The notes under the pieces are model-generated. The model made no database searches. It was not told the DNA's origin and worked only from the letters and a program-made list of their open reading frames with translations. Positions 34,814-59,812 of a DNA stretch of 64,000 nucleotides are shown one piece after another; within the stretch, counting starts at the first letter, position 1; the number at the start of each line of letters is the position of its first letter. Made by a program: the position numbers and the translations under genes. The stretch is from the NCBI GenBank assembly GCA_016183765.1, contig JACPEA010000010.1:186001-250000 (forward strand), written 5' to 3'. Source of the DNA: Bacteroidota bacterium (GTDB taxonomy: Bacteria; Bacteroidota; Bacteroidia; Chitinophagales; Chitinophagaceae).

Positions 34814-35950
34814 TCATACACTTAAACATCCATATATCACATTTACCACCCTTTCTAAATCTTCATCTTCCAGATTGCTTCCGCTCGGAAGACACAGCCC
34901 ATTATTGAACAACTCTTCCGAAACATTGCCCCCGTAATACGGTGAATGCTGAAAAACAGGTTGTAGATGCATTGGTTTCCACAAGGGCCTGCTCTCTATG
35001 TTCTGTGCAGCCAATGCCAACCGGATATCTTCTCTTGTACATCCGGCAGTCTTTGGGTCAACAAGAACAGCGCTCAGCCATCTATTGCTTCTGGATAAGA
35101 CATTTTCCGTTTGAAAAGATATCCCTTTTATAGTATTGAAAGCGTCTTTATACCTCTCAAAATTCTTTCTCCGCTGAGCTACACGCTGATGTAGTACTTC
35201 CATTTGTCCACGGCCAATACCAGCGCATATATTACTCATTCTGTAATTATACCCTATTTGTGAATGCTGGTAGTGTGGTGCCTCATCACGTGCTTGAGTA
35301 GCCAGGAACCTGGCTTTTTTGATATGGCCGTCATTATCCGACAGTAGGGCACCACCGCCGGATGTAGTAATGATTTTATTACCATTGAAAGACAATACGC
35401 TCATAGTACCGAAAGAGCCACAGGCCTTTCCATTATAAGTAGACCCCAATGCTTCTGCTGCATCTTCAATCACAGGAATTTCATATTTTGCAGCTACTGA
35501 CATAATATCGCTCATGTTTGCAGGCATGCCATATAGATGAACCACAATAATGGCTTTCGGCTTTGATCCAACTTTCAGCCTTTCTACAATTGCTTTTTCA
35601 AGTGATTCAGGGCACATATTCCAGCTATCCTTTTCTGAATCAACAAAAACAGGTTTTGAACCAACATAAACGATAGGATTAGCAGATGCAGAAAATGTCA
35701 AACTTTGACAAAGCACTTCATCACCTGGGGTAATTCCCAATATAATCAATGCCAGATGCAAAGCTGCAGTTCCCGAAGAAAGTGCTGCTGCATACGGAAC
35801 TCCTGTAAATTCCACTAAATCCGATTCAAAACCGTCTACATGAGGCCCCATAGGGGATATCCAGTTAGTATTGAACGCCTCCTGGATATTCAACAATTCA
35901 GTGGAACCCATATGCGGAGAGGATAACCATATCTTTTTATTATTCATCAT
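34814..35950 (-). CDS. pglE: DegT/DnrJ-type PLP aminotransferase for 4-amino sugar (PglE-like)
   Basis: The 378-residue product is a sugar aminotransferase of the DegT/DnrJ/EryC1/StrS family: LSSGTAALHLAL near residue 58, EDAAEALGSTYNGKACGSFG near 162 and the PLP-binding Lys in SFNGNKIITTSGGG near 187. With a 4,6-dehydratase (30501), a PglD-type acetyltransferase and a PglC-type transferase it would aminate UDP-4-keto-6-deoxy-GlcNAc to give the precursor of UDP-di-N-acetylbacillosamine. The start overlaps the acetyltransferase stop by 4 bp (ATGA). Order C-D-E matches the epsL-epsM-epsN order of Bacillus subtilis. Confidence 0.88.
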   Translation of the reverse strand: MMNNKKIWLSSPHMGSTELLNIQEAFNTNWISPMGPHVDGFESDLVEFTGVPYAAALSSGTAALHLALIILGITPGDEVLCQSLTFSASANPIVYVGSKPVFVDSEKDSWNMCPESLEKAIVERLKVGSKPKAIIVVHLYGMPANMSDIMSVAAKYEIPVIEDAAEALGSTYNGKACGSFGTMSVLSFNGNKIITTSGGGALLSDNDGHIKKARFLATQARDEAPHYQHSQIGYNYRMSNICAGIGRGQMEVLHQRVAQRRKNFERYKDAFNTIKGISFQTENVLSRSNRWLSAVLVDPKTAGCTREDIRLALAAQNIESRPLWKPMHLQPVFQHSPYYGGNVSEELFNNGLCLPSGSNLEDEDLERVVNVIYGCLSV

Positions 35951-36549
35951 GCCTGATAATTGAATTTGATAATCTTAGCTGGACTGCCTACGGCAACAGC
36001 ATAGTCTGGAATATTCTCAATTACGGTGCTGCCCGCACCGATCACAACCCAATTCCCGATTTTGACACCGGGTATAACTACAGCACCGGCACCAATTTGA
36101 GAGCCCTCACCTACTGACACCCCGCCGCAAAGCGTTACACCGGGAGATATATGGGCAAAATCACCGATAATACAATCGTGATCAATTGAGCTGTTTGTGT
36201 TTATAATACAATGAACCCCAATTGAGGTAAATGGATTCACTATCGCACCGGCCATAACGACCGTACCGTCACCAATTTCCACTTTTGTCAAAGAGATACA
36301 TGATGCCGGGTGAACAGCCTTAGCATAACGGGCATTAAGGGTTGACACTACTTTTTTGCGCGTTAAATTATTCCCTATTGCAATGATTACCGATTCTGAA
36401 AGTCGATCTGCAGACAACGAATCAATCACACGATACCCCTCGACCTGCGCAGACGGATCCTGATCAACGAACAATACTTCTTCTCCATGAGACTGACGAA
36501 TGATATCTGCAATCACTTTACCATGCCCTCCTGCTCCGTATAATATCAT
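35947..36549 (-). CDS. pglD: Sugar O/N-acyltransferase, PglD/NeuD type
   Basis: The 200-residue protein has a Rossmann-like N-terminal part (MILYGAGGHGKVIADIIR), then a left-handed beta-helix. The likely catalytic His is in SSIDHDCIIGDF (about residue 121), and GVTLCGGVSVGEGSQIGAGAVV gives the coil. This is the PglD/NeuD layout and length (PglD is 195 residues). It should acetylate the 4-amino group using acetyl-CoA. It overlaps both neighbours by 4 bp, so the CDE set is translationally coupled. Confidence 0.9.
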   Translation of the reverse strand: MILYGAGGHGKVIADIIRQSHGEEVLFVDQDPSAQVEGYRVIDSLSADRLSESVIIAIGNNLTRKKVVSTLNARYAKAVHPASCISLTKVEIGDGTVVMAGAIVNPFTSIGVHCIINTNSSIDHDCIIGDFAHISPGVTLCGGVSVGEGSQIGAGAVVIPGVKIGNWVVIGAGSTVIENIPDYAVAVGSPAKIIKFNYQA

Positions 36550-37187: not shown

Positions 37188-38414
37188 TCATAAATTGACA
37201 TCATCTACTCCATCATTGTTTACAGTATGTCTTAATTTCCACTCTCCGTTTACTTTAGCCCAAAGATGGGGGGATCTGAATTTGTCAGACAATTCATAAC
37301 GGAAGTAATCTGGATCCATACCGATATAATTCATAACATCCAGGAAATAGCGTTCTGGAAACTCTCCTTCAAATTTCTTAACAAGGGCTTTCCCTTCGTC
37401 ACGGGTCAGGTGTTTATTTCTTATTTCTTGAGATGCATCTTCTGTACATCTCCCGAAACCAAACTTTATAAAGTAGGTGTAATAGTTAATGTCATCAATC
37501 TTATCATCAAGACTAAGGTATTTACTATACGTTCCTTCTGTCCTGAATGGTCTGGCTTTAAAACCTGAGTGTTCTACAGCATAGTAGTAAGATTCCTGCG
37601 GTAGCCATTTCAGATAATAGCCCAGATAAGTTACTTCTACGTTCGAATTTTCGAATTCCTTTTCTGTAGGGGGAAGGAATGTCATTAATTCATTAAGAGA
37701 GATATTATAGTTATCCTGAAGTTCCCTTACAGAAACACCACCTAAAAACAGGTCATCAAGGTTTTTATAAGTATGATAGGAGGCATCGCGGAGGGATGAT
37801 TGGGTTTCTGCAATCGGGTTACCAAACTCAGATTCATGTTCACCATAAAAAATCAGGGGAATTTTATATTTGAGCGCAATTTTAGGTGCCAGGTTCTTTT
37901 GACCTAATATGAATGTCTGGAATGGGTGAAATAAGTTTTCGATGGATAACCTGGTTAAGGTCTTCATCACTCTCCCGTTCTGGTTGAACGATATATTATC
38001 AAATCCGCCGATCTCTATCCAGTTCCTGAAATTTCTGTATCCATAATCAGTATACATGATCGGGGGCCAGGTTACCGTCAGCGGATGCATTCCATATTTA
38101 TATTTCAAAACATGCGCAGCATATACACTGTCCTTGCCGCCACTACCGGGAACAATACAGTCGTAGCTACCATCGTTTTTCCTGTGTTTATTACATAAGT
38201 CTATTAATTGCTTTTCCCGTTCTACCCAGTCTATACTATCCTTTACTTCTGCAAATCTACAGGCATCACAAACGCCATGCTCATCAAAAACCATTGTTTT
38301 CTTTTTGGTTTCTGAGGTGTGCTTGAATTCGATTTCCGAAGAAGGGCGTTGGTTAGAATATAAACATTTTTTACAAAAAACCACTTCTTCTGGGAGACCA
38401 TATAAAGTTTTCAT
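37188..38414 (-). CDS. wbpG: N-acetyl sugar amidotransferase, WbpG/PseA family (module 1)
   Basis: The 408-residue protein has N-terminal cysteine pairs (CKKC near residue 14 and CDAC near 51), probably a zinc site, and the ATP-pyrophosphatase P-loop in VPGSGGKDSVYAAHVLKYK (about residues 85-103). It continues with TVTWPP and the amidotransferase-specific middle region (YGEHESEFGNP). Family members such as P. aeruginosa WbpG and Campylobacter PseA use ammonia supplied by HisH/HisF-type partners to turn an N-acetyl group into an acetamidino group. The HisH and HisF partners lie directly upstream on the same strand. The ATG at 38414 is used; a TTG two codons earlier is unlikely. Followed after 33 bp by the PglC-type gene. 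Confidence 0.9.
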   Translation of the reverse strand: MKTLYGLPEEVVFCKKCLYSNQRPSSEIEFKHTSETKKKTMVFDEHGVCDACRFAEVKDSIDWVEREKQLIDLCNKHRKNDGSYDCIVPGSGGKDSVYAAHVLKYKYGMHPLTVTWPPIMYTDYGYRNFRNWIEIGGFDNISFNQNGRVMKTLTRLSIENLFHPFQTFILGQKNLAPKIALKYKIPLIFYGEHESEFGNPIAETQSSLRDASYHTYKNLDDLFLGGVSVRELQDNYNISLNELMTFLPPTEKEFENSNVEVTYLGYYLKWLPQESYYYAVEHSGFKARPFRTEGTYSKYLSLDDKIDDINYYTYFIKFGFGRCTEDASQEIRNKHLTRDEGKALVKKFEGEFPERYFLDVMNYIGMDPDYFRYELSDKFRSPHLWAKVNGEWKLRHTVNNDGVDDVNL

Positions 38415-38474
38415 AATCAATTAGTTAGTAGGTTTATTGAGATTTATTTCCCGTTAATTAATATGCCTTTGCTA

Positions 38475-39110
38475 CTATTTTACGAATTTGTCATACCAGT
38501 TCATGAAAATATTTAATCCTTTCTTCCCGCTTTTTTCCGGGTGAAATTGGCATGCAAATATATTGTTGATTTGTATACTGGAGCAAAATATGAATCCGTC
38601 GTAATTTGTGGTTGTAAGAACAGCATCAGCAGATTCCGGCATAACATAATAGGAATGTACAAAATACATGGCATCTTTATCGATACCCTGCAGCATGTCT
38701 GTATTAGTTCGGTTTACTCTCGAAATTTCATTCCAGCCAATATGCGGCACTTTTAAGTCCATATCAGATCCTTGATCAAACTTTTTGACTGTGCCGGGTA
38801 CCAAACCAAGTCCTTTGCTATTCCCAAATTCCTCGCTCTCATTAAACAGCAGCTGCAAACCAAGGCATATTCCCAGAACAGGTTTCCCGGATTTACAGAA
38901 ATTACTGAAAGTTTCCACGAGATCCAGGCGTCTAAGATTATCCATGGCTTGGCCAAATGCACCAACGCCAGGTAATATTACCGCATCTGCAGCAGCAATT
39001 ACTGCTTTATCAGAGGAAATCGTTGTTTCCACACCAAAGGATAGAAAAGCGTTTTTTACACTAAACAAATTACCCATTTCATAATCGAGAATGACTACTT
39101 TTTTATTCAT
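38475..39110 (-). CDS. hisH: HisH-type glutamine amidotransferase (module 1)
   Basis: The 211-residue class I glutaminase has the nucleophile elbow GICLGLQLL (Cys near residue 81) and the FHPEKSG motif with the catalytic His and Glu near residues 191-193. It begins with the strand KVVILDYEMGNLFSV typical of HisH. It would hydrolyse glutamine and feed ammonia through the HisF-type partner to the adjacent WbpG-type enzyme. The setting between hisF-like and wbpG-like genes, far from any histidine gene, argues for a sugar-amidation role rather than histidine synthesis. Gap of 8 bp to the hisF-like gene upstream. Confidence 0.92.
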   Translation of the reverse strand: MNKKVVILDYEMGNLFSVKNAFLSFGVETTISSDKAVIAAADAVILPGVGAFGQAMDNLRRLDLVETFSNFCKSGKPVLGICLGLQLLFNESEEFGNSKGLGLVPGTVKKFDQGSDMDLKVPHIGWNEISRVNRTNTDMLQGIDKDAMYFVHSYYVMPESADAVLTTTNYDGFIFCSSIQINNIFACQFHPEKSGKKGLNIFMNWYDKFVK

Positions 39111-39118
39111 ACTTCAAA

Positions 39119-39964
39119 TTAAATTCTACAATGAACGCCTTCTGAGGACAAATACTCTTTCATAGCCGGAATACTGGTTGTATCGAATTTTGAAAAGCCC
39201 GTACCACTCATAAGGAACGCTATATTACCTTCCTTGTTAAAAGCCGACGGGTTTATATCCATCTGCGAACGGTTATAATGGAGCATGGAAGCAACCGCCA
39301 CGGCATCTACGTTTGTATCGTTGAACAAATCTTTAAGGTGTTCCAATTTACCAGCCCCGCCGTGAGCAATAACAGGTATAGAAACGGCAGCCGATACCTG
39401 CCTGATCAACTCAAGGTCGTAACCTTGTCCTGTTCCCTCATTATCAACTGATGTGATAATGATCTCACCTGCTCCGAGTTCTTGCAATTCCCTGGCCCAT
39501 TTTACTACTTCGAGTCCCGTATGTTCTCTTGCATTGTCCGTATAAGCCAGATAAGATCCGTCAGGCTGTTTAATCGCCTCAATGCATGCCACTATATTTG
39601 ATGAACCAAAAATTCGGGAGGCCTCAGAAACAAAATGTTTATTGGCAACTGCAGCCGTATTCAATGATACTTTATCTGCACCCGAACGCAAAGCCATTCT
39701 GATATCATCAATGTTACGTAGTCCGCCTCCTACGGTCAACGGAATGAATATTTCCCGTGCCACACGGGAAATAATATCCTGCAAACTGTTACGATTGTAC
39801 AAACTGGCTACAACGTCCATAAACATCAATTCGTCAGCACCGCTCTCATAATAGTAGCGCGCATAATCTTCCGGTTTCCCCAAAACACGCAATCCTTCAA
39901 GATGGATGCCTTTTACCAGGTTATCACCTTTGATATCCAAACGTGCAATAATTCTCTTATTCAT
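39119..39964 (-). CDS. hisF: HisF-type (beta/alpha)8 partner, active site altered (module 1)
   Basis: The 281-residue TIM-barrel protein follows the HisF pattern: RIIARLDIKGDNLVKGIHL at the start, GADELMFMDVVAS, VGGGLRNIDDI, GAGEIIITSVDNEGTGQGYDL and AHGGAGKLEHL. The Asp equivalent to Asp11 of Thermotoga HisF is kept (RLDI), but the Asp130 position reads Glu (VACIEAIKQ). The protein carries a C-terminal extension of about 25-30 residues relative to standard HisF. It is most likely an ammonia channel and docking partner for the HisH above rather than an imidazole glycerol phosphate cyclase. Confidence 0.9.
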   Translation of the reverse strand: MNKRIIARLDIKGDNLVKGIHLEGLRVLGKPEDYARYYYESGADELMFMDVVASLYNRNSLQDIISRVAREIFIPLTVGGGLRNIDDIRMALRSGADKVSLNTAAVANKHFVSEASRIFGSSNIVACIEAIKQPDGSYLAYTDNAREHTGLEVVKWARELQELGAGEIIITSVDNEGTGQGYDLELIRQVSAAVSIPVIAHGGAGKLEHLKDLFNDTNVDAVAVASMLHYNRSQMDINPSAFNKEGNIAFLMSGTGFSKFDTTSIPAMKEYLSSEGVHCRI

Positions 39965-39976
39965 TATTTAACTGCT

Positions 39977-40720
39977 TTAAATTGCTGTCCAGCCACCATC
40001 TATCATAAGGTTATGACCGGAAATATAACTGGCATCATCCGAGAGAAGAAAAGCTACACCCGGTGCTATCTCCTGTGGTTTAGCCATGCGCCGCAATGGT
40101 ACCCTGGACTCAAATTGTTTTACAAATGTTTCATTCTGGTAATCAAATACTCCTCCGGGCGAAACCGTATTCACACGAACGTTGTATTTTCCATAATATG
40201 ATGCGAGATAACGGGTAAAATTAATCACGCCCCCCTTAATTGCGGAATATGCAGCTGGGGATGTCATGCCCCCGGTATTTTCATAAACGGTGAAATCATT
40301 ACCAACCACTCCGTAGATAGAGGCAACATTTACCAGGCTTCCGCACTGTGCATTTTTCATCACCTCAAGAACTTTCTGCGAACAGTAAAACAGCATATTC
40401 AACTGCATATCTACATTTGTTTTCCATGAACCCAGCGGAATATCTTCAAACGGAACACCCCAGTCTTTGGTTCTTGGATAGGCATTATTTACCCAACCAT
40501 CAATCCGCTGGTGCCTTTCCAATACTGTTTCCACCAGTTTATCTACTGATGAAGGATCAGTTATATCTGCCTGTATAAAATAAGGCAACTTTTGCGTTGG
40601 TTCTGCTATATCTACACAATAGCAGGTGGCAGATTCTTCCAATAATCGTTGCACGATGTGCTGGCCGATCAAACCGTTACCTCCTGTAACGATAATGACT
40701 TTGTCTTTCAGTCTGTTCAT
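39977..40720 (-). CDS. Short-chain dehydrogenase/reductase (PtmA-like)
   Basis: A 247-residue classical SDR: GGNGLIGQHIVQRL (cofactor loop, about residues 12-25), NNAYPR in place of the usual NNAG, catalytic Ser in NVASIYG (about 138) and YSAIKGG with Tyr and Lys (about 161-165), ending DDASYISGHNLMIDGGWT. In Campylobacter flagellar glycan loci a similar SDR (PtmA) sits among legionaminic acid genes, so oxidation or reduction of a sugar intermediate is likely. It shares one base with the aminotransferase stop/start junction (TAATG), showing tight coupling. Confidence 0.88.
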   Translation of the reverse strand: MNRLKDKVIIVTGGNGLIGQHIVQRLLEESATCYCVDIAEPTQKLPYFIQADITDPSSVDKLVETVLERHQRIDGWVNNAYPRTKDWGVPFEDIPLGSWKTNVDMQLNMLFYCSQKVLEVMKNAQCGSLVNVASIYGVVGNDFTVYENTGGMTSPAAYSAIKGGVINFTRYLASYYGKYNVRVNTVSPGGVFDYQNETFVKQFESRVPLRRMAKPQEIAPGVAFLLSDDASYISGHNLMIDGGWTAI

Positions 40721-42024
40721 TAATTGTATTTTCGGAATACAGGCTTAATAACGGGTGAACGTAGATAAGCCGATACATCCCCGTCCAGTGCTTTGCCATA
40801 GGTATCCATTGCCTTGTCCACTGCCTCGAGGGTCATCGACAACTCTTCGCTGCCATGAGATGCAGAAAGTGCTATATACGGCATCATTACATGCCTGTCG
40901 AGCAACTGTTCAGCAAATATTGTACGAAGAGAAAGTGATACAGTACCAGTCTTGTCTTTGGTAACATAATTTGGCGAGCAATATGCTCCTTCCATGTATA
41001 TGAAATCCCTGATACCTTTCTTTTCCGCCAGATCATTAAATCCTCTCATCAGCTTCTCACCATAACTCCAAAAATGATCTATAACATTGTCACGTTTCAA
41101 TACCTCAGCTGTTTTAATAAAAGCACCCAAAGCGCTCATTTCTGCTCCATGTGTAGTGGAGGTTAGAAAAACCCGCTCCGCGCCTTCGGTGAGGATTGAA
41201 CCCAGTTCCATGATCTCTTTTTTTCCACCAAGCGCCGCTACCGCAAACCCGTTTGCCATCGCCTTTCCGAATGTTGTGAGATCAGGATCGAGGTCATAAT
41301 ATTTCTGGGCCCCGTTAAGATGCCATCTAAAACCTGTAATCATTTCATCAACAATAAACAACGCCCACTCTTTTTTACATAACGATTGTACCTGTGACAG
41401 GAATGAACCAATCGGAAGGATATTGGTAGCAGCTTCCATCATTACACCAGCTATCTGACCAGGATATTCTTCAAATAGCTTATTGAGCGATTCAATGTCA
41501 TTAAATGCAAATTTCAATGTATAGGAAGCAGACTCCTCTATCGTACCTCTTCTGATGACAGTAGATCCGATAAACCAGTCATCGAAAGAAAAAAAAGGTT
41601 GCTCCTGGGGCACCGCTATGTATTTACGCCCGGTATAGGCCCTTGCCAGTTTGACTGCGGCAGTAGTTACTGTTGAGCCATGTTTGGCAAATTTTACCAT
41701 GTCTATTGCAGTAACCGTATCAATCATCAGTTCGGCTGCCTTCAGTTCTGTAAGAGAGGGGCGTGTAAGGTTATTCCCTTTCATCGATTCCTCATATACA
41801 GCATTACAGACCTCCTCGTTTCCATATCCCAGGTTAACTGAACGCAATCCCATACCATAGTCCAGATAACGTGTTCCGTCGATCCCCCATACGTAAGCTC
41901 CTTTCCCGTGGGAGAGGATCGCGGGTGCGTTTAAAGGGAATTGGTCATCACCTCGTGAATAGGTGTGTGCGCCACCAGGTATAGCTTTGTGCAGTCTTTT
42001 CTTTAAGTTATCATTTGTTTCCAC
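40720..42024 (-). CDS. Class III aminotransferase, glutamate-1-semialdehyde aminomutase-like
   Basis: The 434-residue PLP enzyme has KRLHKAIPGGAHTYSRGDDQF at the N terminus, DGTRYLDYGMG (about 49), VKFAKHGSTVTTAAVKLARA (about 110), FIVDEMITGFR with the ring-contacting Asp (about 223) and the Schiff-base Lys in TFGKAMANGF (about 255). These are the landmarks of the HemL-like class III group. Because it lies between an SDR and an acyltransferase in a sugar cluster, a role in transaminating or isomerising an amino-sugar precursor is favoured over haem synthesis. It overlaps the acyltransferase gene by 14 bp. Confidence 0.85.
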   Translation of the reverse strand: METNDNLKKRLHKAIPGGAHTYSRGDDQFPLNAPAILSHGKGAYVWGIDGTRYLDYGMGLRSVNLGYGNEEVCNAVYEESMKGNNLTRPSLTELKAAELMIDTVTAIDMVKFAKHGSTVTTAAVKLARAYTGRKYIAVPQEQPFFSFDDWFIGSTVIRRGTIEESASYTLKFAFNDIESLNKLFEEYPGQIAGVMMEAATNILPIGSFLSQVQSLCKKEWALFIVDEMITGFRWHLNGAQKYYDLDPDLTTFGKAMANGFAVAALGGKKEIMELGSILTEGAERVFLTSTTHGAEMSALGAFIKTAEVLKRDNVIDHFWSYGEKLMRGFNDLAEKKGIRDFIYMEGAYCSPNYVTKDKTGTVSLSLRTIFAEQLLDRHVMMPYIALSASHGSEELSMTLEAVDKAMDTYGKALDGDVSAYLRSPVIKPVFRKYN

Positions 42025-42688
42025 AGCTGAAAAAATTGTTGATTAGTTTTTTTTTGTTATTCAAAATAACATGTGCCGGATAATTGCCAACAACCACGCT
42101 GTTGTGAGGCACTTTGGTATTAATCAGCGAACTGTTTGCCCCAAGTACGAAGTCTGTTCCTATATGACAATTACCTATTACTGACGAATTGGAGTACAGA
42201 ACAGTACGTTCTGAAAAAATCGGGTATTCAGCCGCTTCATTTGCACCTATGGTTACACGCTGGTATACCACAAAATAATCGCTATAGCTTGCTTTGCCAA
42301 GAACAGTTCCCAACGGATGAACAAAAAGAAAATAATTAGGCAGAGATATACTGTAGAACGCATCCACTCCAAACAGTGCTTTGTTAAGAAGAAACACTTT
42401 TGTGGCAATATTTATCTTTTGGTTTTTATAGAGTTCATTCGAAATAATGTACAGGAACATGGAATAATGATCACCGTTCAGATGATTAAAATAAGACATG
42501 GATCCTTGTCTATAATAAGGCAATTCAATCTTTTCGAAGCAAGTTTCAATACGATCCATTGCGATCGATAGCGCAGACTGTATATCTGTTTTCCGGACCA
42601 CATCTGAATCAGGATAAAAACAATTGATCTGTTTTGAAAGATATTCGGCAATATCTTCCCTTCCGATACTGGTAACGAATCCTTTCAT
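42011..42688 (-). CDS. Serine-acetyltransferase-like hexapeptide acyltransferase
   Basis: The product of about 225 residues has a helical N-terminal half (to about residue 115) and a left-handed beta-helix with FVHPLGTVLGKASYSDYFVVYQ, RVTIGANEAAEYPIF, and SSVIGNCHIGTDFVLGANSSL. The layout recalls serine acetyltransferase CysE, but the catalytic His of the CysE loop is only loosely matched by VHPLGTVLG. In this position it may N- or O-acylate the amino sugar made by the preceding enzymes. The ATG at 42688 is chosen over a GTG nine codons upstream since the latter lies inside the hisF-like gene. Confidence 0.75.
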   Translation of the reverse strand: MKGFVTSIGREDIAEYLSKQINCFYPDSDVVRKTDIQSALSIAMDRIETCFEKIELPYYRQGSMSYFNHLNGDHYSMFLYIISNELYKNQKINIATKVFLLNKALFGVDAFYSISLPNYFLFVHPLGTVLGKASYSDYFVVYQRVTIGANEAAEYPIFSERTVLYSNSSVIGNCHIGTDFVLGANSSLINTKVPHNSVVVGNYPAHVILNNKKKLINNFFSCGNK

Positions 42689-42692
42689 ATAA

Positions 42693-43451
42693 CTAAATCT
42701 CCTTGATTTTGACACCGTTATTTTTCAAATAGGCTCTTGCTCTGATGGGATTATTATCACCAAAATGAAAAATGCTGGCCATAGCCAATGCGCTAACCTG
42801 TGTTGTCTTATATGCGTCTGCCAGATGCTTGAAATTACCTGCCCCTCCGCATCCGATTATGGGGAGGTTGGTATTTTTGTTTACCAGACTCAATAGTTCC
42901 AGATCATATCCGTTCATTTCTCCATCCCTGTCTATATTATTGATAAAAAGCTCACCTGCCCCAGATTTTTCCATGTTATTCATATGCTCTACCAATGATA
43001 TATTTATCTCCTCTCTCCCCGAATTCCTATACAGCTTGTATTCTCCGTTTACTTTCCGAACATCTATACCCACAATGATGCATTGGCTGCCAAATTTCTC
43101 AGCACCGTCTCTTATCAACTTATGATCTTGGTACGCTGCAGAATTAATAATAACCTTATCAGCACCAATTAGCAGCAGCTCCCGGATATCGTCTATCGTT
43201 CTGATTCCCCCTCCGATAGAAAGGGGCATAAAGCACTCTTTGGATACCCTTGCAATAACATCCCTGTTTGTGGATCTGTTCTCGTTTGTAGCATCTATAT
43301 CGAGAAAAGCCAGTTCATCCACATATTGAGCATTATACACTCGTGAAGCGTAGACAGGATCCCCCGTGTCGCGGTAATCGGTAAATTGTTTTCCTTTTAC
43401 CATACGTCCGTTTCTCAGTAACAGGGTTGGGATTAACCGTTGTTTAAGCAT
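42693..43451 (-). CDS. hisF: HisF-type (beta/alpha)8 partner, catalytic Asp11 lost (module 2)
   Basis: The 252-residue TIM barrel matches HisF in GGGIRTIDDI, GADKVIINSAA, GIDVRKVNGEY, NIDRDGEMNGYDL and GCGGAGNFKHL. At the N terminus the conserved IPCLDV strand reads IPTLLL, so the Asp equivalent to Asp11 is replaced by Leu, while the Asp130 equivalent (GIDV) remains. The cyclase reaction of histidine synthesis should therefore be impaired. It overlaps the hisH-like gene by 8 bp (ATG within its last codons). The start at 43451 is preferred to an upstream non-ATG codon. Confidence 0.92.
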   Translation of the reverse strand: MLKQRLIPTLLLRNGRMVKGKQFTDYRDTGDPVYASRVYNAQYVDELAFLDIDATNENRSTNRDVIARVSKECFMPLSIGGGIRTIDDIRELLLIGADKVIINSAAYQDHKLIRDGAEKFGSQCIIVGIDVRKVNGEYKLYRNSGREEINISLVEHMNNMEKSGAGELFINNIDRDGEMNGYDLELLSLVNKNTNLPIIGCGGAGNFKHLADAYKTTQVSALAMASIFHFGDNNPIRARAYLKNNGVKIKEI

Positions 43452-44061
43452 TGGACATTTTTGAAAAGTTATCAAGTATTTTCAATCCCTGTTTTTGGCT
43501 TTTCTCCGGATGGAACTGAATACCTATCACGTTTCTCCTTTCATTCGTTATAATAGATGTGAAATCAGTGCCATACTCTGTTGTAGTCACTACATTTGAT
43601 TTGTAAGCAGGCATAAAAACAAACGAATGAACAAAATAGAAATCTGCACTCATCTTAACACCCTCGAGAATCGTATGCTCCGACTGCAGGTTTATACCGT
43701 TCCATCCCATATGTGGAAGACTTAGGTTTTTGCTTGGTAGCAGTTCTACCCTTCCTTTGATCAGGTCTAGTCCTCTGCAAATAGCGGGCTCTGTTCCTTC
43801 AGTAGCGAGCAATTGCATACCCAAGCAAATCCCCAGCAATGGCTTACCGCTGTTTGCAAAAGTCGCAATGGGATCTATGAAGCCAGCCCTGGCAATGTTT
43901 TCCATAGCTGCACCAAACGCACCTACACCAGGAATGATCATATGTGAAACTCCTGCTATTTGGTCAGGAGATGAGAGAATTACATTCTCGATCTGAAGAA
44001 AGCTTAATGCATTTCTTACAGACGAAAGATTACCCATTCCGTAGTCGAGTATTCCTATCAT
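43444..44061 (-). CDS. hisH: HisH-type glutamine amidotransferase (module 2)
   Basis: The 205-residue glutaminase has the nucleophile motif GICLGMQLL (Cys near residue 80), PHMGWNGI, and the FHPEKSQ motif with catalytic His and Glu (near 186-188), and begins IGILDYGMGNLSSVRNAL. It would release ammonia for the WbpG-type enzyme of the same module. It overlaps both neighbours (4 bp with the amidotransferase, 8 bp with the hisF-like gene), the expected arrangement for subunits made in equal amounts. It is a different lineage from the copy at 38475 (for example ICLGM versus ICLGL, and different C-terminal tails). Confidence 0.93.
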   Translation of the reverse strand: MIGILDYGMGNLSSVRNALSFLQIENVILSSPDQIAGVSHMIIPGVGAFGAAMENIARAGFIDPIATFANSGKPLLGICLGMQLLATEGTEPAICRGLDLIKGRVELLPSKNLSLPHMGWNGINLQSEHTILEGVKMSADFYFVHSFVFMPAYKSNVVTTTEYGTDFTSIITNERRNVIGIQFHPEKSQKQGLKILDNFSKMSNA

Positions 44062-45224
44062 CTTTTGTTTTTCTCTTTATACCATTCATCGATATCATGT
44101 GGTTTCTCACCTACCGGGATATTATTGAAATCCGGTTCAAACGGCGGAACAACAAATTTAGCTACCATTGAATTGAATTCGTCTTCAGTAATACCCATAT
44201 AATCGAGAAATATCTGTAATGACTGCGGTTTTCTTCCTTCATATTCATCAATCCATTTCTGAGCTTCTTCAGTACTCATCCTTCCATTTCTAATCTCGAA
44301 GTTCGTCAGTTGGGTAACGCGGCTATACCCTCTTTTCAAGTACTTGATATAATCACGTGTAGCCTGCATCCAACATTCGATCTTCGCGAATTCCTTGTTG
44401 ATGTTTTCAGGCACACCCTCTAATTCATCGCCTGTCCATCCCAGTTCTTCCATAATCAATTTCGTATTCGCCTTGTAATCCCAGGGAATAAAACTTCCGA
44501 GGCATACCGAATAATAATCCATCTTCTTCAAATCTTCCAGTTTCGGATAGGTATATGGCATGAGATCTCTCTTATCCACAGGATCTGATTCACTATGTAT
44601 CATGCCCCACATGTCATCAGCTGTGATACCAAGGTTTCGTACCATGTTGAATTTTTCTTCATCTTCCCACTCGATAATGTTGTCTTCATACGTGTAGTAG
44701 GCAGACATCTCCGCTAACGGCTCACCCCATAGAATCAATGGCACATTGAACTTCAATGCTATCTGTAACGGGTAGGAATAAATACCGGTGTGGCAATGCC
44801 AGCAAAAATCTGTTTTACGGGAAAAAGACTCCCACATCAGCTTTTTAACAATCTGCCAGTTAGGCGTGAAATTGATAAAATCAGCTCCCAATTTCTTCAA
44901 AACCTTTTCAACATTCCGTTCGTGATTGGAGCGCATGAATCCGTGATTAAACCTTACAACCAAAGGCTTTAACTTATACTCCTTTATCAGGTAATACAAT
45001 GTGAAAGTGCTATCCTTCCCTCCACTGAACGGAACAATACAATCGTAATCATACTTCCCACGATACTTCTCAATAACCGAATCAAGCATGACCTTTCTTT
45101 TTGCCCAGTCAACATTCTGCTGTTTAAACTGTGATGTCTTGCACATATTGCACGACTTCCCGTCGTCGTCTATTACTAGTGTCTCATATGTTTCCGGTAA
45201 GAGACAGTTGCCACATTTTCGCAT
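44058..45224 (-). CDS. wbpG: N-acetyl sugar amidotransferase, WbpG/PseA family (module 2)
   Basis: The 388-residue protein shows N-terminal Cys pairs (CGNC near residue 4, CNMC near 25) and the PP-loop VPFSGGKDSTFTLYYLIK (about 63-80). The middle region contains FCWHCHTGIYSYPLQIALKF and LWGEPLAEM, typical of the PseA/PtmG-like side of the family. Expected to make an acetamidino or related amidine group on a sugar, using ammonia from the HisH/HisF pair that follows. It differs clearly in length and sequence from the module-1 enzyme, so a different substrate or position is likely. Confidence 0.9.
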   Translation of the reverse strand: MRKCGNCLLPETYETLVIDDDGKSCNMCKTSQFKQQNVDWAKRKVMLDSVIEKYRGKYDYDCIVPFSGGKDSTFTLYYLIKEYKLKPLVVRFNHGFMRSNHERNVEKVLKKLGADFINFTPNWQIVKKLMWESFSRKTDFCWHCHTGIYSYPLQIALKFNVPLILWGEPLAEMSAYYTYEDNIIEWEDEEKFNMVRNLGITADDMWGMIHSESDPVDKRDLMPYTYPKLEDLKKMDYYSVCLGSFIPWDYKANTKLIMEELGWTGDELEGVPENINKEFAKIECWMQATRDYIKYLKRGYSRVTQLTNFEIRNGRMSTEEAQKWIDEYEGRKPQSLQIFLDYMGITEDEFNSMVAKFVVPPFEPDFNNIPVGEKPHDIDEWYKEKNKR

Positions 45225-45234
45225 TTTGTATATT

Positions 45235-45954
45235 TTATCTTGTTAAATTAAACTTACCATTATTTTTAGCAGTCATAATCGCTTCAACAATAAAAAAATC
45301 TTCAAGTGTATCGATCTCAAAAGACTGCCATTTAGGCAATTCATACCCAATCGTAAGACCGTCTTTATAAAATGTTTTTTCGCTTTTATACGGAAGCACT
45401 TTTGCGATGTAAAAGCTGCCCTCCGGATAAAACACTTCCGAGAGATCCTGACGTCTGACCACATTATCCTGTGTCAGGTATGCATTCACAAAATGCTGCC
45501 TGTCCTTCGTAAACAGGAAGGATGGATGTGCGGACTCTGCTTTAGTGACACTAACACAAAAAAATGCACCCGGAGTTTTATCAAGTATCGCAATCGCCTC
45601 ATCTATATCACGCACATCTCTGAGTGGGGATGTAGGTTCAAGCAGCACCAGCAAATCATAAACTTTGCCGTGGTTCTCCAGGTATTCAAATGCATGCAAC
45701 ACTGCATCCGAACTCTTTGCCGTATCCGACGCAAGTTCAGCCGGCCGCCTGAACGGCACCTCTGCACCAAAGGAACGCGCTGTCTCAGCAATTTTATCAT
45801 CATCTGTGGATACAAACACTTCCTCGCAATACTTACTCTGTAAAGCGCATTCTATCGTATGAGCGATTAGTGGTTTGTTTAATAGCGGCATACAATTTTT
45901 GCCAGGCAACCCTTTGCTTCCGCCGCGAGCCAATATCAGAAATAAAACTTTCAC
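45235..45954 (-). CDS. Acylneuraminate cytidylyltransferase-type nucleotidyltransferase
   Basis: The 239-residue product has the family start FLILARGGSKGLPGKN (nucleotide-binding loop), VSTDDDKIAETARSFGAEVPFRRP, LLEPTSPLRDVRDID and the C-terminal FEIDTLEDFFIVE. These are the landmarks of the NeuA/LegF/PseF (CMP-ulosonate synthetase) family. It would activate a nine-carbon ulosonic acid, or another sugar, with CTP. No NeuB/LegI/PseI condensing enzyme is in the window. It overlaps the CBS-nucleotidyltransferase gene by 4 bp, an association also seen in the Campylobacter ptm locus. Confidence 0.88.
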   Translation of the reverse strand: MKVLFLILARGGSKGLPGKNCMPLLNKPLIAHTIECALQSKYCEEVFVSTDDDKIAETARSFGAEVPFRRPAELASDTAKSSDAVLHAFEYLENHGKVYDLLVLLEPTSPLRDVRDIDEAIAILDKTPGAFFCVSVTKAESAHPSFLFTKDRQHFVNAYLTQDNVVRRQDLSEVFYPEGSFYIAKVLPYKSEKTFYKDGLTIGYELPKWQSFEIDTLEDFFIVEAIMTAKNNGKFNLTR

Positions 45955-47006
45955 AAATGTATTCTTTTTATGTCTTCCTGTGCTTTTAAATAATCGCTGT
46001 GCTGACCTATGTCTAGCCAGTACCCCAAATGCGGATAATGTGTGAGCACTCCTCCGTTACGGATAAGGTTATCCATCAGATCGGTTGTATTGAAGTGCTG
46101 ATTAACTGGTATTCCGTCTTTTAGAGGCTTGTGCAGAATATACATACCACCATTGCTATAATAGTTGAAATTAGGCTTTTCCACAAATGAGACGATTCTC
46201 TGTCCTGCCACTTCCAGTACAGCATACGGCACCTGTACATGATAGGGAATACTTGCAACACACATATTCGACTGGTGTGCCAGATAACACTCAAAAAAAC
46301 TCTGGTAATCGATATCCGTAAGAATATCCGAATTAATAACCAAAATATGTTCGTGCTCAATATCGGGGATCAGCGCCAAAGCGCCTAGTGTACCCAAAGG
46401 TACCTCTTCTTTGACGTACCTGATAGAGACATCAAATGCATTTCCGTCGCCAAAATATTCTATAATCTTTTCACTTAAATAATTAACACTGATGAGGATG
46501 TTCTTGATACCGAATTTTTTAAGTCGTTCAATATTGTGCTGGAGAATAGGTTTGTTATCAATCCTCAACATTGGTTTGGGTGTATTCAGCGTCAAAGGCC
46601 TTAGTCTTTCACCCCTACCCCCAGCCATTATCAATGCAGTGATAGGAAGGATATTAGTCAGCTTGGACAGATCAGCGATTTCGAGTATACTTCCGTCCGC
46701 ATCCAGAATAGGGACCATTCCTATGTCCATTTGCCTGAAAGTCTTGATCTTTTCAAACTTATCTTCCGAATCAAGCAGGAATTTAAAATCCTTGCTCATA
46801 CAGTTTTCCAACGTATCGGTAAGATTCAGGTCATTTAGAAAGCCGCGTCTGATATCTCCGTCTGTTATTGCCCCAACTAGTTTATTACTATCGTTAACAA
46901 CAAATAGCGTTCGGGAGTTCGTTTCCGATAGTGAGTTCAGCTGTTTCAATGCTGATCTAACGGTTGCGCGGATATTGATCACATGCATCTGTATACTAGT
47001 AGCCAT
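45951..47006 (-). CDS. CBS-domain sugar nucleotidyltransferase (PtmE-like)
   Basis: The 351-residue protein has two CBS motifs at the N terminus (LFVVNDSNKLVGAITDGDIRR and VPILDADGSILEI, residues about 1-115) followed by a GT-A-like nucleotidyltransferase domain: ALIMAGGRGERLRPLTLNTP (about 128-147), PKPMLRIDNKPILQ and a YWLDIGQHSDYLKA end. This is the architecture of PtmE, which makes GDP-glucosamine in legionaminic acid synthesis. The CBS pair may sense an adenine nucleotide. The ATG at 47006 is used; the frame's upstream TTG is less likely. It follows the GT2 gene by 20 bp. Confidence 0.9.
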   Translation of the reverse strand: MATSIQMHVINIRATVRSALKQLNSLSETNSRTLFVVNDSNKLVGAITDGDIRRGFLNDLNLTDTLENCMSKDFKFLLDSEDKFEKIKTFRQMDIGMVPILDADGSILEIADLSKLTNILPITALIMAGGRGERLRPLTLNTPKPMLRIDNKPILQHNIERLKKFGIKNILISVNYLSEKIIEYFGDGNAFDVSIRYVKEEVPLGTLGALALIPDIEHEHILVINSDILTDIDYQSFFECYLAHQSNMCVASIPYHVQVPYAVLEVAGQRIVSFVEKPNFNYYSNGGMYILHKPLKDGIPVNQHFNTTDLMDNLIRNGGVLTHYPHLGYWLDIGQHSDYLKAQEDIKRIHL

Positions 47007-47026
47007 CCTGTCCAAAGTTTACTATT

Positions 47027-49894: not shown

Positions 49895-51745
49895 CTACTT
49901 AATATGAGAATAATACCATGTGGAGAAACAAAATAAAATGAACATCTCTGATACAAGCATACTATCCGACATTGATTTTTCAGAAAAATAAACATCCGTG
50001 TTGATACGCTTCAACATATCGATGTCCCGTATGGCCATTATACGTTCCCTGAATGTATCGTGGTTCTGTGCAATCCAATGACGCACAGGTCCTGAAAACC
50101 CCTGCTTTTTGCCATTAAGGGTGCGATCATCCACTCTTCCTTTCGCCATGAGCCGCATTAATAGCCGTGTCTGGTCCAACGAAACGTGCATGTCCGGAAT
50201 ATATTGATAACTCTCTTTTATCAGATTTGTATCCAGCAGTGGCACACGTCCTTCGATGGTATTAGCCATCGTCAGTTGATCAAGTGTGTACAATAAAAGG
50301 TCCGGCAAGTATACTCTGAGATCAAAATTGATATGGCGGTAAAACAAAGGTTGGTCCGGATCGATCTTAGGAAACCTGCCAATAATATCACCTGTTATAT
50401 AGCGGTAAAAATCAGTGTTTTTGGAGAAATAAGAATTTGCCAACATCGGTGACCCACCTGAAAGTAGCATCATGTCAATTCCGGGATCCTGTAAACGCGC
50501 TTTAAAAGGTGCATTATTCCGGATCACTCCACTCAATAGCCTACGGGCAGCGAACGGTGTCTTCAACCAAAGATTCCTTGCTCGGTTATAACCAATATAA
50601 CGTGAATAACCGCCCAATACCTCGTCGCCACCAGTACCGCTTAACAGCACCTTTACGGAATCGGCGGCGGCCATTTCTGATAAACAATAGGTAGGAACAA
50701 TTGCACTGTCTGCAACAGGTTCGCTCATTCCGCCAAGCGCCTTATCGAGGTATCCAATAATTTCATCCGACCTGATAATCCGTTCGGTATGCCTTGTATG
50801 ATATCTTTGCGCAAGAGAGGCTGCCACGGGCAGCTCACTTTGCTGCAGTCCATCATCATAGCCCGCGCTGTACGTATGCATTCCTTCATAATGTTTTGCA
50901 GCACTGGCTACTATCATACTGCTGTCGAATCCTCCGGAAAGAAAAGCACCAACTTTAACATCTCCCACAAGCTGTGACTCTACGCTCTGATCCAGTACAT
51001 GCAACAGATTTTCTGAAGCTTCTTCCGGCCTTGTACGTTTTCTGCTGCTGTTTGCCGGTGGTGTCCAATAAGACCTCATAGTTATGTGACCAGAGGTATC
51101 GATGATCATATAATGAGCAGGCTGCAGTTTTTGTACGCCTTCATAAATGGACATATTATTAGGAACATAGTTTGCAAAGAAGTATGCAATCAGTGATTCC
51201 CTGTTCATACTTATTCCATTACCCCATGAGAGCGCCTGTGACTCTGATGCAAAACTTATCTGTTCCACATCTGCTTTGTAATAGAAGGGTTTAATACCCA
51301 GCGGGTCCCTTGCGCAAAACAATTTTTTCTCAATGTTGTCCCAAATTGCAAACGCAAACATTCCATTAAACTTACTCAGGCATTCCTCTTTCCATTGCGC
51401 ATAGGCTGCGAGTATAACTTCCGTATCGCTGTTTGTGCGAAACTCATGACCCAGGGATATCAAGGTTTTTCTGACCTGCAGGTAGTTAAACAACTCACCA
51501 TTATAAGTGATCCAATATCTTTCCTTATAGGCCATCGGTTGTGAGGAAGTGGAAGAAAGATCTATGATGGAAAGCCGCCTGTGTCCCAACGCAATGCCCT
51601 GGTAGCTGCATCTATCATCTAACTCACTAAGCCAGATACCTGCTGCATCTTTCCCCCTATGCACCTGCCTGTTACAGCAATGGGAGATTTCATTGGAAGA
51701 AACCTTTCTGTTATCAAACTTTATTATACCGGCAATACCACACAT
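49895..51745 (-). CDS. asnB: Asparagine synthase-type glutamine amidotransferase
   Basis: A 616-residue class II amidotransferase: the Ntn nucleophile Cys is residue 2 (MCGIAGI), the glutaminase domain includes GHRRLSIIDLS and YNGELFNY, and the synthetase half has the PP-loop LSGGFDSSMIV (about residue 269) and LLSGTGGDEVLGGYSRY (about 372). Members of this group inside polysaccharide clusters amidate uronic acids or similar sugars; true asparagine synthesis is also possible. Its immediate partner on the strand is a heparinase II/III-family gene, 2 bp away, a pairing often seen in such clusters. Confidence 0.9.
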   Translation of the reverse strand: MCGIAGIIKFDNRKVSSNEISHCCNRQVHRGKDAAGIWLSELDDRCSYQGIALGHRRLSIIDLSSTSSQPMAYKERYWITYNGELFNYLQVRKTLISLGHEFRTNSDTEVILAAYAQWKEECLSKFNGMFAFAIWDNIEKKLFCARDPLGIKPFYYKADVEQISFASESQALSWGNGISMNRESLIAYFFANYVPNNMSIYEGVQKLQPAHYMIIDTSGHITMRSYWTPPANSSRKRTRPEEASENLLHVLDQSVESQLVGDVKVGAFLSGGFDSSMIVASAAKHYEGMHTYSAGYDDGLQQSELPVAASLAQRYHTRHTERIIRSDEIIGYLDKALGGMSEPVADSAIVPTYCLSEMAAADSVKVLLSGTGGDEVLGGYSRYIGYNRARNLWLKTPFAARRLLSGVIRNNAPFKARLQDPGIDMMLLSGGSPMLANSYFSKNTDFYRYITGDIIGRFPKIDPDQPLFYRHINFDLRVYLPDLLLYTLDQLTMANTIEGRVPLLDTNLIKESYQYIPDMHVSLDQTRLLMRLMAKGRVDDRTLNGKKQGFSGPVRHWIAQNHDTFRERIMAIRDIDMLKRINTDVYFSEKSMSDSMLVSEMFILFCFSTWYYSHIK

Positions 51746-57663: not shown

Positions 57664-57996
57664 TCAAAACATTACATATACACTGTCAGATACAAAACCA
57701 TCAATCTGAATAAATCGTGCCACATTTTGATGTAACACGATTAGATCACTAATCATTGAATCAGTGAATACTAAATGTGAGCCCGGAGATAATTTTTCTC
57801 TTATAGCCGAGAAGTTATTCCAATCAATTTCAAAATCGGAAGCATTCATCCTGCTATTCTTTCGTTTTAGAAAGTAAGTATCAGCAGTCAACTCATCCGG
57901 TTCAGTTGTTTCTTTTAAAGCACAATAACTTTCAATATGCTTTGAAAAAAAAATATCCGTAAGTTCCTGTGCCTGTTTAATCGAGTGCGTATTCAT
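57664..57996 (-). CDS. Small protein of unknown function
   Basis: A 110-residue product that overlaps the end of the carbamoyltransferase gene by 20 bp, as expected for a coupled downstream gene. It has no signal peptide or membrane helix and is moderately acidic, with a hydrophobic C-terminal part (HQNVARFIQIDGFVSDSVYVMF). I do not recognise a family. Codon use looks like that of its AT-rich neighbours. It could also be the remnant of a longer gene, since it ends abruptly in VMF. Confidence 0.45.
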   Translation of the reverse strand: MNTHSIKQAQELTDIFFSKHIESYCALKETTEPDELTADTYFLKRKNSRMNASDFEIDWNNFSAIREKLSPGSHLVFTDSMISDLIVLHQNVARFIQIDGFVSDSVYVMF

Positions 57997-59809: not shown

Positions 59810-59812
59810 CAA

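What the first reader, a model, noticed from the sequence alone, without database searches (positions are those of the whole stretch)
37188..45224. Two amidotransferase modules in mirror order around an aminotransferase-SDR-acyltransferase core
In transcription order the minus strand reads WbpG2-HisH2-HisF2-acyltransferase-class III aminotransferase-SDR-HisF1-HisH1-WbpG1. Each module has all three parts (PP-loop SGGKDS enzyme, glutaminase with the Cys-His-Glu triad, HisF-type barrel). The mirrored order argues against simple tandem duplication, and the two sets differ in length and motifs. Known loci (WbpG/HisH2/HisF2 in Pseudomonas, PseA with HisH/HisF in Campylobacter) have one module per sugar as far as I recall. 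Two modules around a shared core suggest one sugar receiving two amidine/amide groups, or two different amidated sugars in one glycan.
Basis: partly seen in the sequence, partly recalled or inferred. Interest (0 to 1): 0.78.

Follow-up and report, generated by a model that had tools for sequence, protein, structure and literature searches.

The report
Doubly amidinated sialic-acid-like sugar locus
A bacterial surface-sugar gene cluster holds two amidine-adding enzyme sets from two old, separate families, one of a kind found in gene clusters for sialic-acid-like sugars and one of a kind that comes with an extra aminotransferase and acyltransferase, so the cell would likely make one sialic-acid-like sugar carrying two positively charged amidine groups, a sugar that my paper searches did not find.

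Summary
In detail: nine contiguous minus-strand genes at 37188-45224, in the stated order, with complete motifs. The mirror order is not an inverted duplication: the modules are old paralogues (WbpG 24%, HisH 44%, HisF 37% identity) from two clades. Module 1 (WbpG1/HisH1/HisF1) belongs to a clade found beside nonulosonic-acid genes in 26 of 26 other loci examined, 22 with NeuB/NeuC-type (LegI/LegG) genes. Module 2 belongs to a clade that, in 18 of 18 class-III-aminotransferase loci holding it, comes with the same CysE-like acyltransferase. The sugar's synthase and epimerase lie just outside the window, next to a complete pseudaminic pathway. A Burkholderiaceae MAG has a similar locus (34 genes matching at over 100 bits) with both modules in another order; its module 2 and HisF1 are not sisters of the window's, so the pairing was kept or remade from different parts. 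Best reading: a legionaminic-type sugar with a third nitrogen (likely C8) and two amidines. The site, the exact sugar, and both groups being on one residue are inferred. Main rival: two different sugars. A new variant of a known kind.

The parts
44058..45224 (-). WbpG2: PP-loop N-acetyl sugar amidotransferase, clade 2 (found with class III aminotransferase)
   Evidence: TIGR03573 305.7 bits, cut-off 203.2; SGGKDS at residue 67; 20-row clade 100/100
43444..44061 (-). HisH2: glutaminase of module 2
   Evidence: Cys-His-Glu kept; groups with partners of clade-2 WbpG (SH-aLRT 85)
42693..43475 (-). HisF2: barrel of module 2 (ATG at residue 9 is a likelier start)
   Evidence: PF00977 226 bits; position 11 is Leu, 130 Asp, in 13 of 13 module-2 barrels aligned
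42011..42715 (-). ACT: CysE-like acyltransferase, predicted N-acetyltransferase
   Evidence: serine acetyltransferases in PDB, best E 4e-7; invariant D118/H133 in 11 of 11 aligned; present in 18 of 18 module-2 loci
40720..42024 (-). AT3: class III (GSAM-like) aminotransferase, PRK06209
   Evidence: 600.9 bits, cut-off 486; Lys254 region aligns with GSAM 2cfb
39977..40720 (-). SDR oxidoreductase (PRK09186/PtmA-like, below both cut-offs), predicted to make the keto group for AT3
   Evidence: 229.7 bits against 255 for PRK09186, 142.5 against 350 for PtmA
39119..39964 (-). HisF1: barrel of module 1
   Evidence: PF00977 211 bits; position 11 Asp, 130 Glu, in 12 of 12 module-1 barrels aligned
38475..39110 (-). 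HisH1: glutaminase of module 1
   Evidence: Cys-His-Glu kept; groups with partners of clade-1 WbpG (SH-aLRT 89)
37188..38420 (-). WbpG1: PP-loop N-acetyl sugar amidotransferase, clade 1 (nonulosonic-acid operons; PDB 8wex kin)
   Evidence: 339.5 bits, cut-off 203.2; 528 bits to 8wex against 61 for WbpG2; 12-row clade 100/100, 26 rows with more loci (SH-aLRT 99)
45235..45954 (-). CMP-nonulosonate synthetase-like cytidylyltransferase
   Evidence: PseF 158.3 bits, below cut-off 205.7; CMP-NeuAc synthetase 6ifd in PDB, E 2e-38
45951..47015 (-). PtmE-like CBS + sugar nucleotidyltransferase (name by resemblance)
   Evidence: PF00483 and PF00571
53490..54689 (-). LegB-like dehydratase (probable precursor step; name by resemblance)
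   Evidence: PF02719; no NCBIfam match at 1e-40; its G395 counterpart scores 608 bits to the LegB-like gene of L039
34814..35950 (-). LegC-like DegT aminotransferase
   Evidence: LegC family 395 bits, just below cut-off 420
35947..36549 (-). NeuD/PglD-like acetyltransferase
   Evidence: TIGR03570 213.8 bits, cut-off 160.8

Best explanation
The locus carries two amidotransferase modules from two old, separate families and is predicted to build one legionaminic-acid-type nonulosonic acid in which module 1 likely amidinates an original N-acetyl group (probably at C5) and module 2 likely amidinates a third nitrogen (probably at C8) put in by the SDR and the class III aminotransferase and acetylated by the CysE-like enzyme. 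Proposed steps: the LegB-like, LegC-like, NeuD, NeuC (LegG) and NeuB (LegI) enzymes make a 5,7-diamino nonulosonic acid, and the cytidylyltransferase activates it (inferred from families). The SDR oxidises a hydroxyl to a ketone, AT3 transaminates it, and ACT acetylates the new amine (inferred from families and the fixed gene set). In each module HisH frees ammonia from glutamine, the HisF barrel passes it on, and the PP-loop WbpG activates the N-acetyl group with ATP and turns it into acetamidino (family mechanism, recalled). Shown here: gene content, the two clades, their contexts, the fixed ACT partnership, and the recurrence of both modules in a second, distant genome. Not shown: the substrate, the carbon positions, and that both groups sit on one residue.
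For: Module 1: 26 of 26 other loci examined are in nonulosonic-acid context, 22 of 26 with NeuB/NeuC (LegI/LegG-type) genes and the other 4 with PtmE and CMPs (23 of the 26 placed in the clade by tree, by score only). Module 2: WbpG2-type genes in 18 of 80 AT3 loci, ACT in 18 of these 18 against 5 of 62 others (2 of the 5 cut by contig ends), in the order WbpG2-HisH-HisF-ACT in 18 of 18. At least 7 of the 18 also have a DegT aminotransferase, PglD/LegH, LegG and LegI, so AT3 and ACT look like a third amine and a third acetyl. In 4 of 6 module-2 genomes searched whole, the only NeuB is the LegI-like one in that locus. Each HisF set breaks the catalytic Asp pair in its own fixed way. Both modules recur in G395; the window's WbpG2, HisF2 and HisF1 are not sisters of G395's (p-AU 3e-36, 1e-7, 5e-8), while WbpG1 is (100/99). 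An 8-amino nonulosonic acid is reported from Flexibacter maritimus (PMC3210612, passages). AT3 also occurs fused to a cytidylyltransferase (P0086).
Against: No glycan structure is known for this organism. The synthase and epimerase pass the general NeuB and NeuC models (500.4 against 399.65; 473.9 against 235.9), which do not separate neuraminic from legionaminic acid; LegB and LegC-like assignments are by resemblance or just below cut-off. A complete pseudaminic pathway lies beside the locus in both two-module genomes, and some clade-2 WbpG genes lie in pseudaminic loci without ACT (L136, L176, L177, L222). One of five clade-2 genes found by the AT3-independent search (G275) has no AT3 in the 19 kb examined; AT3 is on another contig. 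The HisF partners of the other WbpG2 branch (L064, L073, L079, L091, L113) do not join the window's HisF2 in the tree but fall nearer true HisF (88/84). The two-module pairing is rare: 1 of 80 AT3 loci, 1 of 395 phylum genomes, none of 26 other clade-1 loci. The tree-corrected ACT-WbpG2 link is 5 of 6 independent pairs, p 0.0625. The SDR and cytidylyltransferase are below their curated cut-offs. The Flexibacter sugar has the manno, pseudaminic-like configuration, and whether that species has AT3 was not tested. C8 rests on that one sugar and on recalled class III aminotransferase chemistry.
Confidence: 0.47

Rival explanations
1. Two different sugars of one glycan: module 1 amidinates the legionaminic-type residue, and AT3, ACT and module 2 modify the pseudaminic residue made by the neighbouring pathway.
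For: A full Pse set (PseB, PseC, PseG, PseI, PseF, all over cut-off) lies directly upstream in the window genome and a matching set in G395. Clade-2 WbpG genes also occur in Pse loci (L136, L176, L177, L222).
Against: The window's WbpG2 is in an 8-row subclade (100/100) whose other seven loci all hold a LegI-type synthase. In 4 of 6 such genomes searched whole the only NeuB is LegI-like. AT3, ACT, HisF2, HisH2 and WbpG2 overlap one another in the window.
Confidence: 0.23
2. AT3 and the SDR act early, supplying the amino group of the nucleotide-hexose precursor as PtmA and PtmF are thought to do in Campylobacter (recalled), and module 2 amidinates N5 or N7 instead of a third nitrogen.
For: AT3 sits beside PtmE-like and PtmA-like genes, and PtmF-like genes occur in 36 of 62 AT3 loci without WbpG2. 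ptmA is placed in the GDP-GlcNAc step (PMC4481668, passages).
Against: PtmF is in 0 of 18 module-2 loci. The SDR fails the PtmA model (142.5 against 350). AT3 family members also occur in Pse loci (L176, L177, L179), and AT3 occurs fused to a cytidylyltransferase. At least 7 of 18 loci already hold both nitrogen-supplying steps of a 5,7-diamino sugar.
Confidence: 0.16
3. Redundant modules: a module acquired later repeats or replaces the step of the other.
For: The locus is lower in GC than the sequence to its left (0.37-0.42 against 0.43-0.49), so chance accumulation of acquired genes is possible.
Against: All six genes are intact with their motifs, belong to clades with different contexts, and the same pair recurs in a Burkholderiaceae MAG with different versions of the parts.
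Confidence: 0.07

Closest known systems
PtmG / legionaminic acid 5-acetamidino formation (Campylobacter; Legionella Sg1 ORF28)
   Same: An enzyme of nonulosonic-acid loci that converts CMP-Leg5Ac7Ac to CMP-Leg5Am7Ac (PMC3766260, passages). Module 1 has nonulosonic-acid context in 26 of 26 loci.
   Different: The product described carries one amidine; no named PtmG sequence was compared here, only a 74%-identical protein so labelled (P0169).
L. pneumophila Sg6/Sg12 O-antigen genes Lp6_762-775
   Same: GSAM-like aminotransferase, cytidylyltransferase, acetyltransferase, HisF, HisH and LPS protein side by side, with NeuB nearby (tables in PMC3694923, passages): it looks like the module-2 gene set; sequences not compared.
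   Different: One HisF/HisH/LPS-protein set in the table; PseG and an aldo/keto reductase instead of LegG and SDR; no role for the aminotransferase in the passages seen.
Flexibacter (Tenacibaculum) maritimus 8-amino nonulosonic acid
   Same: A nonulosonic acid with nitrogens at C5, C7 and C8 in an O-antigen (PMC3210612, passages).
   Different: No amidine reported; manno configuration; its genes were not examined here (the gene-cluster paper is not held).
Sphingomonas EPS locus with WbuX, HisF2-family and HisH
   Same: An acetamidino gene set in an EPS locus (PMC11340318, passages).
   Different: One set in the passage seen; WxcM/MviM sugar genes, no nonulosonic-acid genes in that passage.
FucNAm-type WbuX/HisH/HisF modules
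   Same: Same three-part machinery; 20-row clade in the tree.
   Different: Distant clade, mostly without nonulosonic-acid genes nearby; the clade name is inferred from neighbours, not tested.

Membership tests
N-acetyl sugar amidotransferase WbuX (TIGR03573) | model score over cut-off and PP-loop motif, both copies | tested here: met
   339.5 and 305.7 against 203.2; SGGKDS in both
WbuZ (TIGR03572) and AglZ/HisF2 (NF038364) barrels | equivalog score over cut-off | tested here: not met
   WbuZ 271.7 and 288 against 299.7; AglZ 212.7 and 262.6 against 310: kin, not members by these models
Histidine-biosynthesis HisF | both catalytic Asp (11 and 130, numbering recalled) and equivalog cut-off | tested here: not met
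   D/E in module 1 (12 of 12 aligned), L/D in module 2 (13 of 13 aligned); 268 and 254.8 against 294.55
HisH glutaminase (TIGR01855) | Cys-His-Glu triad and cut-off | tested here: met
   triad in 47 of 47 aligned; 222.6 and 213.6 against 105.4, a model that also takes in true HisH
PtmG-type Leg amidination module | nonulosonic-acid operon context of the clade | tested here: met
   26 of 26 other loci, 22 with NeuB/NeuC (LegI/LegG-type) genes; L207 and L221 have a synthase nearer PseI
PtmG-type Leg amidination module | forms CMP-Leg5Am | not testable with these tools
   needs enzymology
NeuB / NeuC (TIGR03569 / TIGR03568), genes just outside the window | score over cut-off | tested here: met
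   500.4 against 399.65 and 473.9 against 235.9; these models do not tell Leg from Neu
Pseudaminic pathway PseB, PseC, PseG, PseI, PseF, outside the window | score over cut-off | tested here: met
   511.4/407.75, 447.4/423.5, 189.4/153.55, 508.1/340.25, 284.3/205.7
LegC aminotransferase (TIGR04181), 34814-35950 | score over cut-off | tested here: not met
   395 against 420, best family
Class III aminotransferase PRK06209 | score over cut-off | tested here: met
   600.9 against 486
PtmA flagellin modification SDR (NF050062) | score over cut-off | tested here: not met
   142.5 against 350
Pseudaminic acid cytidylyltransferase PseF (TIGR03584), gene 45235-45954 | score over cut-off | tested here: not met
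   158.3 against 205.7; filed only as PseF/NeuA-like
CysE/EpsC left-handed beta-helix acetyltransferase | catalytic Asp-His pair and model cut-off | tested here: inconclusive
   Asp118/His133 invariant in 11 of 11, but 62.1 against 150 for EpsC; no fold could be predicted

The most novel reading that the evidence does not exclude
Bacteria in two phyla make a triamino, bis-amidinated legionaminic acid, a sialic-acid-like sugar whose two amidinium groups outweigh its carboxylate and give it a net positive charge, by pairing the known Leg amidination module with a second module that amidinates a nitrogen installed at C8 by an SDR, a class III aminotransferase and a CysE-like acetyltransferase.
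Probability: 0.33. Interest if true: 0.72.

Novelty: new variant of a known kind. Interest (0 to 1): 0.55.

Why it matters
Acetamidino groups on surface sugars add positive charge (recalled chemistry), and the review passage I saw places those on Pse, Leg and 8eLeg at N5 (PMC9912281). A sugar with two would be a cationic counterpart of sialic acid and could change how phages, lectins and antibodies see the cell (inference). The work also splits nonulosonic-acid amidotransferases into clades with a fixed signature in HisF (Asp/Glu against Leu/Asp at positions 11/130), and gives the PRK06209 'glutamate-1-semialdehyde aminomutase' label, which is probably misleading here, a testable role: third-nitrogen formation on nonulosonic acids.

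Tried and rejected
Tandem or inverted duplication: rejected (24-44% identity, separate clades with own contexts). Module 1 as stray histidine genes: rejected (own his genes on contig C7, D130E in 12 of 12, nonulosonic-acid context). A sugar made wholly inside the window: rejected after NeuB hits were found 1.3 and 6.7 kb beyond its end. Paper searches that gave nothing direct: 'diacetamidino', '8-acetimidoyl' and 'bis-acetamidino' had no occurrences in the 20 listed of 22 papers; WbpG/HisH2/HisF2/acetamidino showed no two-module locus in the titles and abstract starts of the 14 papers listed. The passages found in the T. maritimum genome paper held nothing on its O-antigen, and the O-antigen cluster paper is not held.

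Limits: of the 69 over-cut-off WbuX matches, 49 were seen, 39 with wide flanks and 10 only with 1.5 kb flanks; 20 were not looked at. Only one true HisF and HisH were in the trees. The 6 WbpG1 genomes include the window's own, and the 3 and 13 include G395 by design. Module-1 loci L210, L211 and L216 were assigned by score (469, 492, 346 bits), not by tree. Three p-AU tests were run on pairs named after the first trees were seen.

Full report
Observation. Family searches confirm two WbuX amidotransferases, two HisH glutaminases, two HisF barrels, a PRK06209 class III aminotransferase (AT3), an SDR and a weakly CysE-like acyltransferase (ACT). A PtmE-like nucleotidyltransferase and a PseF/NeuA-like cytidylyltransferase precede them in the same run.

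Which sugar. The window ends inside the gene run. The next 20 kb of the contig (L141) shows, in transcription order upstream of the window, PseB, an ABC transporter, PseC, a methyltransferase, PseG, a formyltransferase, PseI, PseF, Gfo/Idh, DegT, a 310-aa gene, GNAT, LegI (NeuB) and LegG (NeuC). PF03102 finds two NeuB genes in the genome, both there. PseB, PseC, PseG, PseI and PseF pass their curated cut-offs; LegI passes the NeuB model (500.4 against 399.65) and LegG the NeuC model (473.9 against 235.9), and these two models do not tell neuraminic from legionaminic acid. In the window a DegT protein is nearest LegC but just below its cut-off (395 against 420), a NeuD passes (213.8 against 160.8), and a LegB-like dehydratase (53490-54689) is named by resemblance only. 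So the locus encodes two nonulosonic acids, one pseudaminic and one probably legionaminic. The other gene names are by resemblance.

The two modules are old and separate. WbpG1 and WbpG2 share 24%, HisH 44%, HisF 37%. In a 64-row WbuX tree WbpG2 lies in a 20-row clade (100/100) and WbpG1 in a 12-row clade (100/100); a larger quick tree of 80 rows keeps both (21 rows, 100; 26 rows, 99). HisF1 partners form one clade (100/99). HisF2 partners of the window's WbpG2 subclade group together (85/73, 99), but the partners of the other WbpG2 branch fall nearer true HisF (88/84), so the barrels do not follow WbpG2 all the way. HisH supports are modest (81-92). The catalytic Asp pair of true HisF (positions 11 and 130, recalled numbering) is Asp/Glu in 12 of 12 module-1 and Leu/Asp in 13 of 13 module-2 barrels aligned, so neither is expected to be a normal histidine cyclase. 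HisF1 is sister to the one true HisF included (98/90), which may mean a later recruitment.

Module 1 context. Besides the window and L095, 26 clade-1 loci were examined: 23 (10 from earlier fetches, 13 new) and 3. All 26 have nonulosonic-acid genes in the stretch: 22 have NeuB/NeuC (LegI/LegG-type) genes, of which L207 and L221 have a synthase nearer PseI, and 4 (L120, L138, L210, L212) show only PtmE and CMPs. None has AT3 over 300 bits or a clade-2 WbpG. L189 has a weak ACT-like match (62 bits), and L221 has a distant GSAM-like gene (143 bits) about 9 kb away. Genome G169 has a clade-1 module in a Leg-type locus and an AT3 in a Pse-type locus about 40 kb away.

Module 2 context. In 80 AT3 loci, WbpG2-type genes are within 8 kb in 18, always with ACT (18 of 18; 5 of 62 otherwise, of which L080 and L109 are cut by contig ends) and never with PtmF (0 of 18 against 36 of 62). 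Their order is WbpG2-HisH-HisF-ACT on one strand in 18 of 18, with room for another gene between HisF and ACT in L073, L090, L091 and L105. On the AT3 tree the WbpG2 trait changed at least 9 times and ACT went with it in 5 of 6 independent pairs (p 0.0625). Because these loci were picked by AT3, the AT3-independent search matters: of five clade-2 genes among the 49 of 69 matches seen (G000, G170, G341, G283, G275), four have AT3 or a GSAM-like gene beside them (G170's scores only 145-160 bits), and in G275 AT3 is on another contig. The four other than G000 lie in Pse-type loci and lack ACT, so clade 2 has a Pse branch; the window's copy is in the branch of LegI-type loci.

Why a third nitrogen. 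At least 7 of 18 module-2 loci (L064, L073, L074, L078, L093, L096, L101) also carry a DegT aminotransferase, PglD/LegH, LegG and LegI, the usual sources of the two nitrogens and their acetyls. AT3 and ACT are then extra. An 8-amino nonulosonic acid is on record (PMC3210612, passages), and class III aminotransferases commonly accept methyl ketones (recalled), which fits C8 next to the C9 methyl. This position is inference.

Recurrence. L095, a Burkholderiaceae MAG (genome G395), holds both modules in the order PtmE-CMPs-AT3-SDR-WbpG2-HisH2-HisF2-ACT-WbpG1-HisF1-HisH1. On its 55-kb contig 34 genes match the window locus at over 100 bits and 7 more weakly (WbpG1 75%, carbamoyltransferase 68%, PseI 64%, WbpG2 63%, AT3 54% identity), the Pse pathway included. 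WbpG1 of the two genomes are sisters (100/99), but holding the WbpG2, HisF1 or HisF2 pairs together is rejected (p-AU 3.4e-36, 4.8e-8, 1.3e-7; the pairs were chosen after the first trees). The same pairing thus exists with different versions of the parts, which argues for joint function. It is rare: 1 of 80 AT3 loci, 1 of 395 genomes of the phylum sample. The three same-genus genomes sampled lack WbpG1, and GC falls from 0.43-0.49 to 0.37-0.42 across the locus, so it was probably acquired horizontally.

Literature. Acetimidoyl on Pse, Leg and 8eLeg is described at N5 (PMC9912281, passages); PtmG acts on CMP-Leg5Ac7Ac (PMC3766260, passages); what looks like the module-2 gene set appears in Legionella Sg6/Sg12 tables (PMC3694923, passages). 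My terms for a double amidine had no occurrences in the 20 listed of 22 papers; this library omits most subscription papers, so absence from print is not shown.

Verdict. A real, rare combination of two amidotransferase types on a nonulosonic-acid locus. I hold one triamino, doubly amidinated legionaminic-type sugar as the best reading (0.47), two separately amidinated sugars as the main rival (0.23).

Noticed in passing
L123 8038-11940, L127 1-3608, L128 7682-11444: Two WbuX amidotransferases from different clades flank a single HisH-HisF pair in pseudaminic loci, as if two amidinations share one ammonia source; L119 and L214 have two WbpG side by side in Leg-type loci.
   Followed up: partly
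L041 11281-12063, L083 11043-11825, L179 9240-10025: A carbon-nitrogen hydrolase (PF00795) sits within 4 kb of AT3 in 19 of 80 loci; it may be an omega-amidase, which would suggest glutamine as AT3's amino donor.
   Followed up: partly
AT3 loci L039-L118: PtmF-like Gfo/Idh genes are in 36 of 62 AT3 loci without WbpG2 and in 0 of 18 with it; unexplained.
   Followed up: no
P0086: A cytidylyltransferase (PF02348, SpsF-like by resemblance) fused to AT3 in one 690-aa protein.
   Followed up: no
G000:C14 beyond window end (L141 9519-10406): A formyltransferase-like gene (by resemblance) inside the pseudaminic pathway suggests an N-formyl pseudaminic acid.
   Followed up: no
49895-51745, 57977-59812, 51748-53478: Asparagine-synthase-like, carbamoyltransferase and heparinase-like genes in the same locus, all with counterparts in G395; further amide and carbamoyl decorations are likely.
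   Followed up: partly
25235-26941 and 28205-29698: Two similar outer-membrane-type proteins, perhaps Wzi-like (resemblance recalled, not searched).
   Followed up: no
43475 (HisF2 start): The listed TTG start overlaps HisH2 by 32 bases; the ATG at residue 9 is likelier.
   Followed up: no
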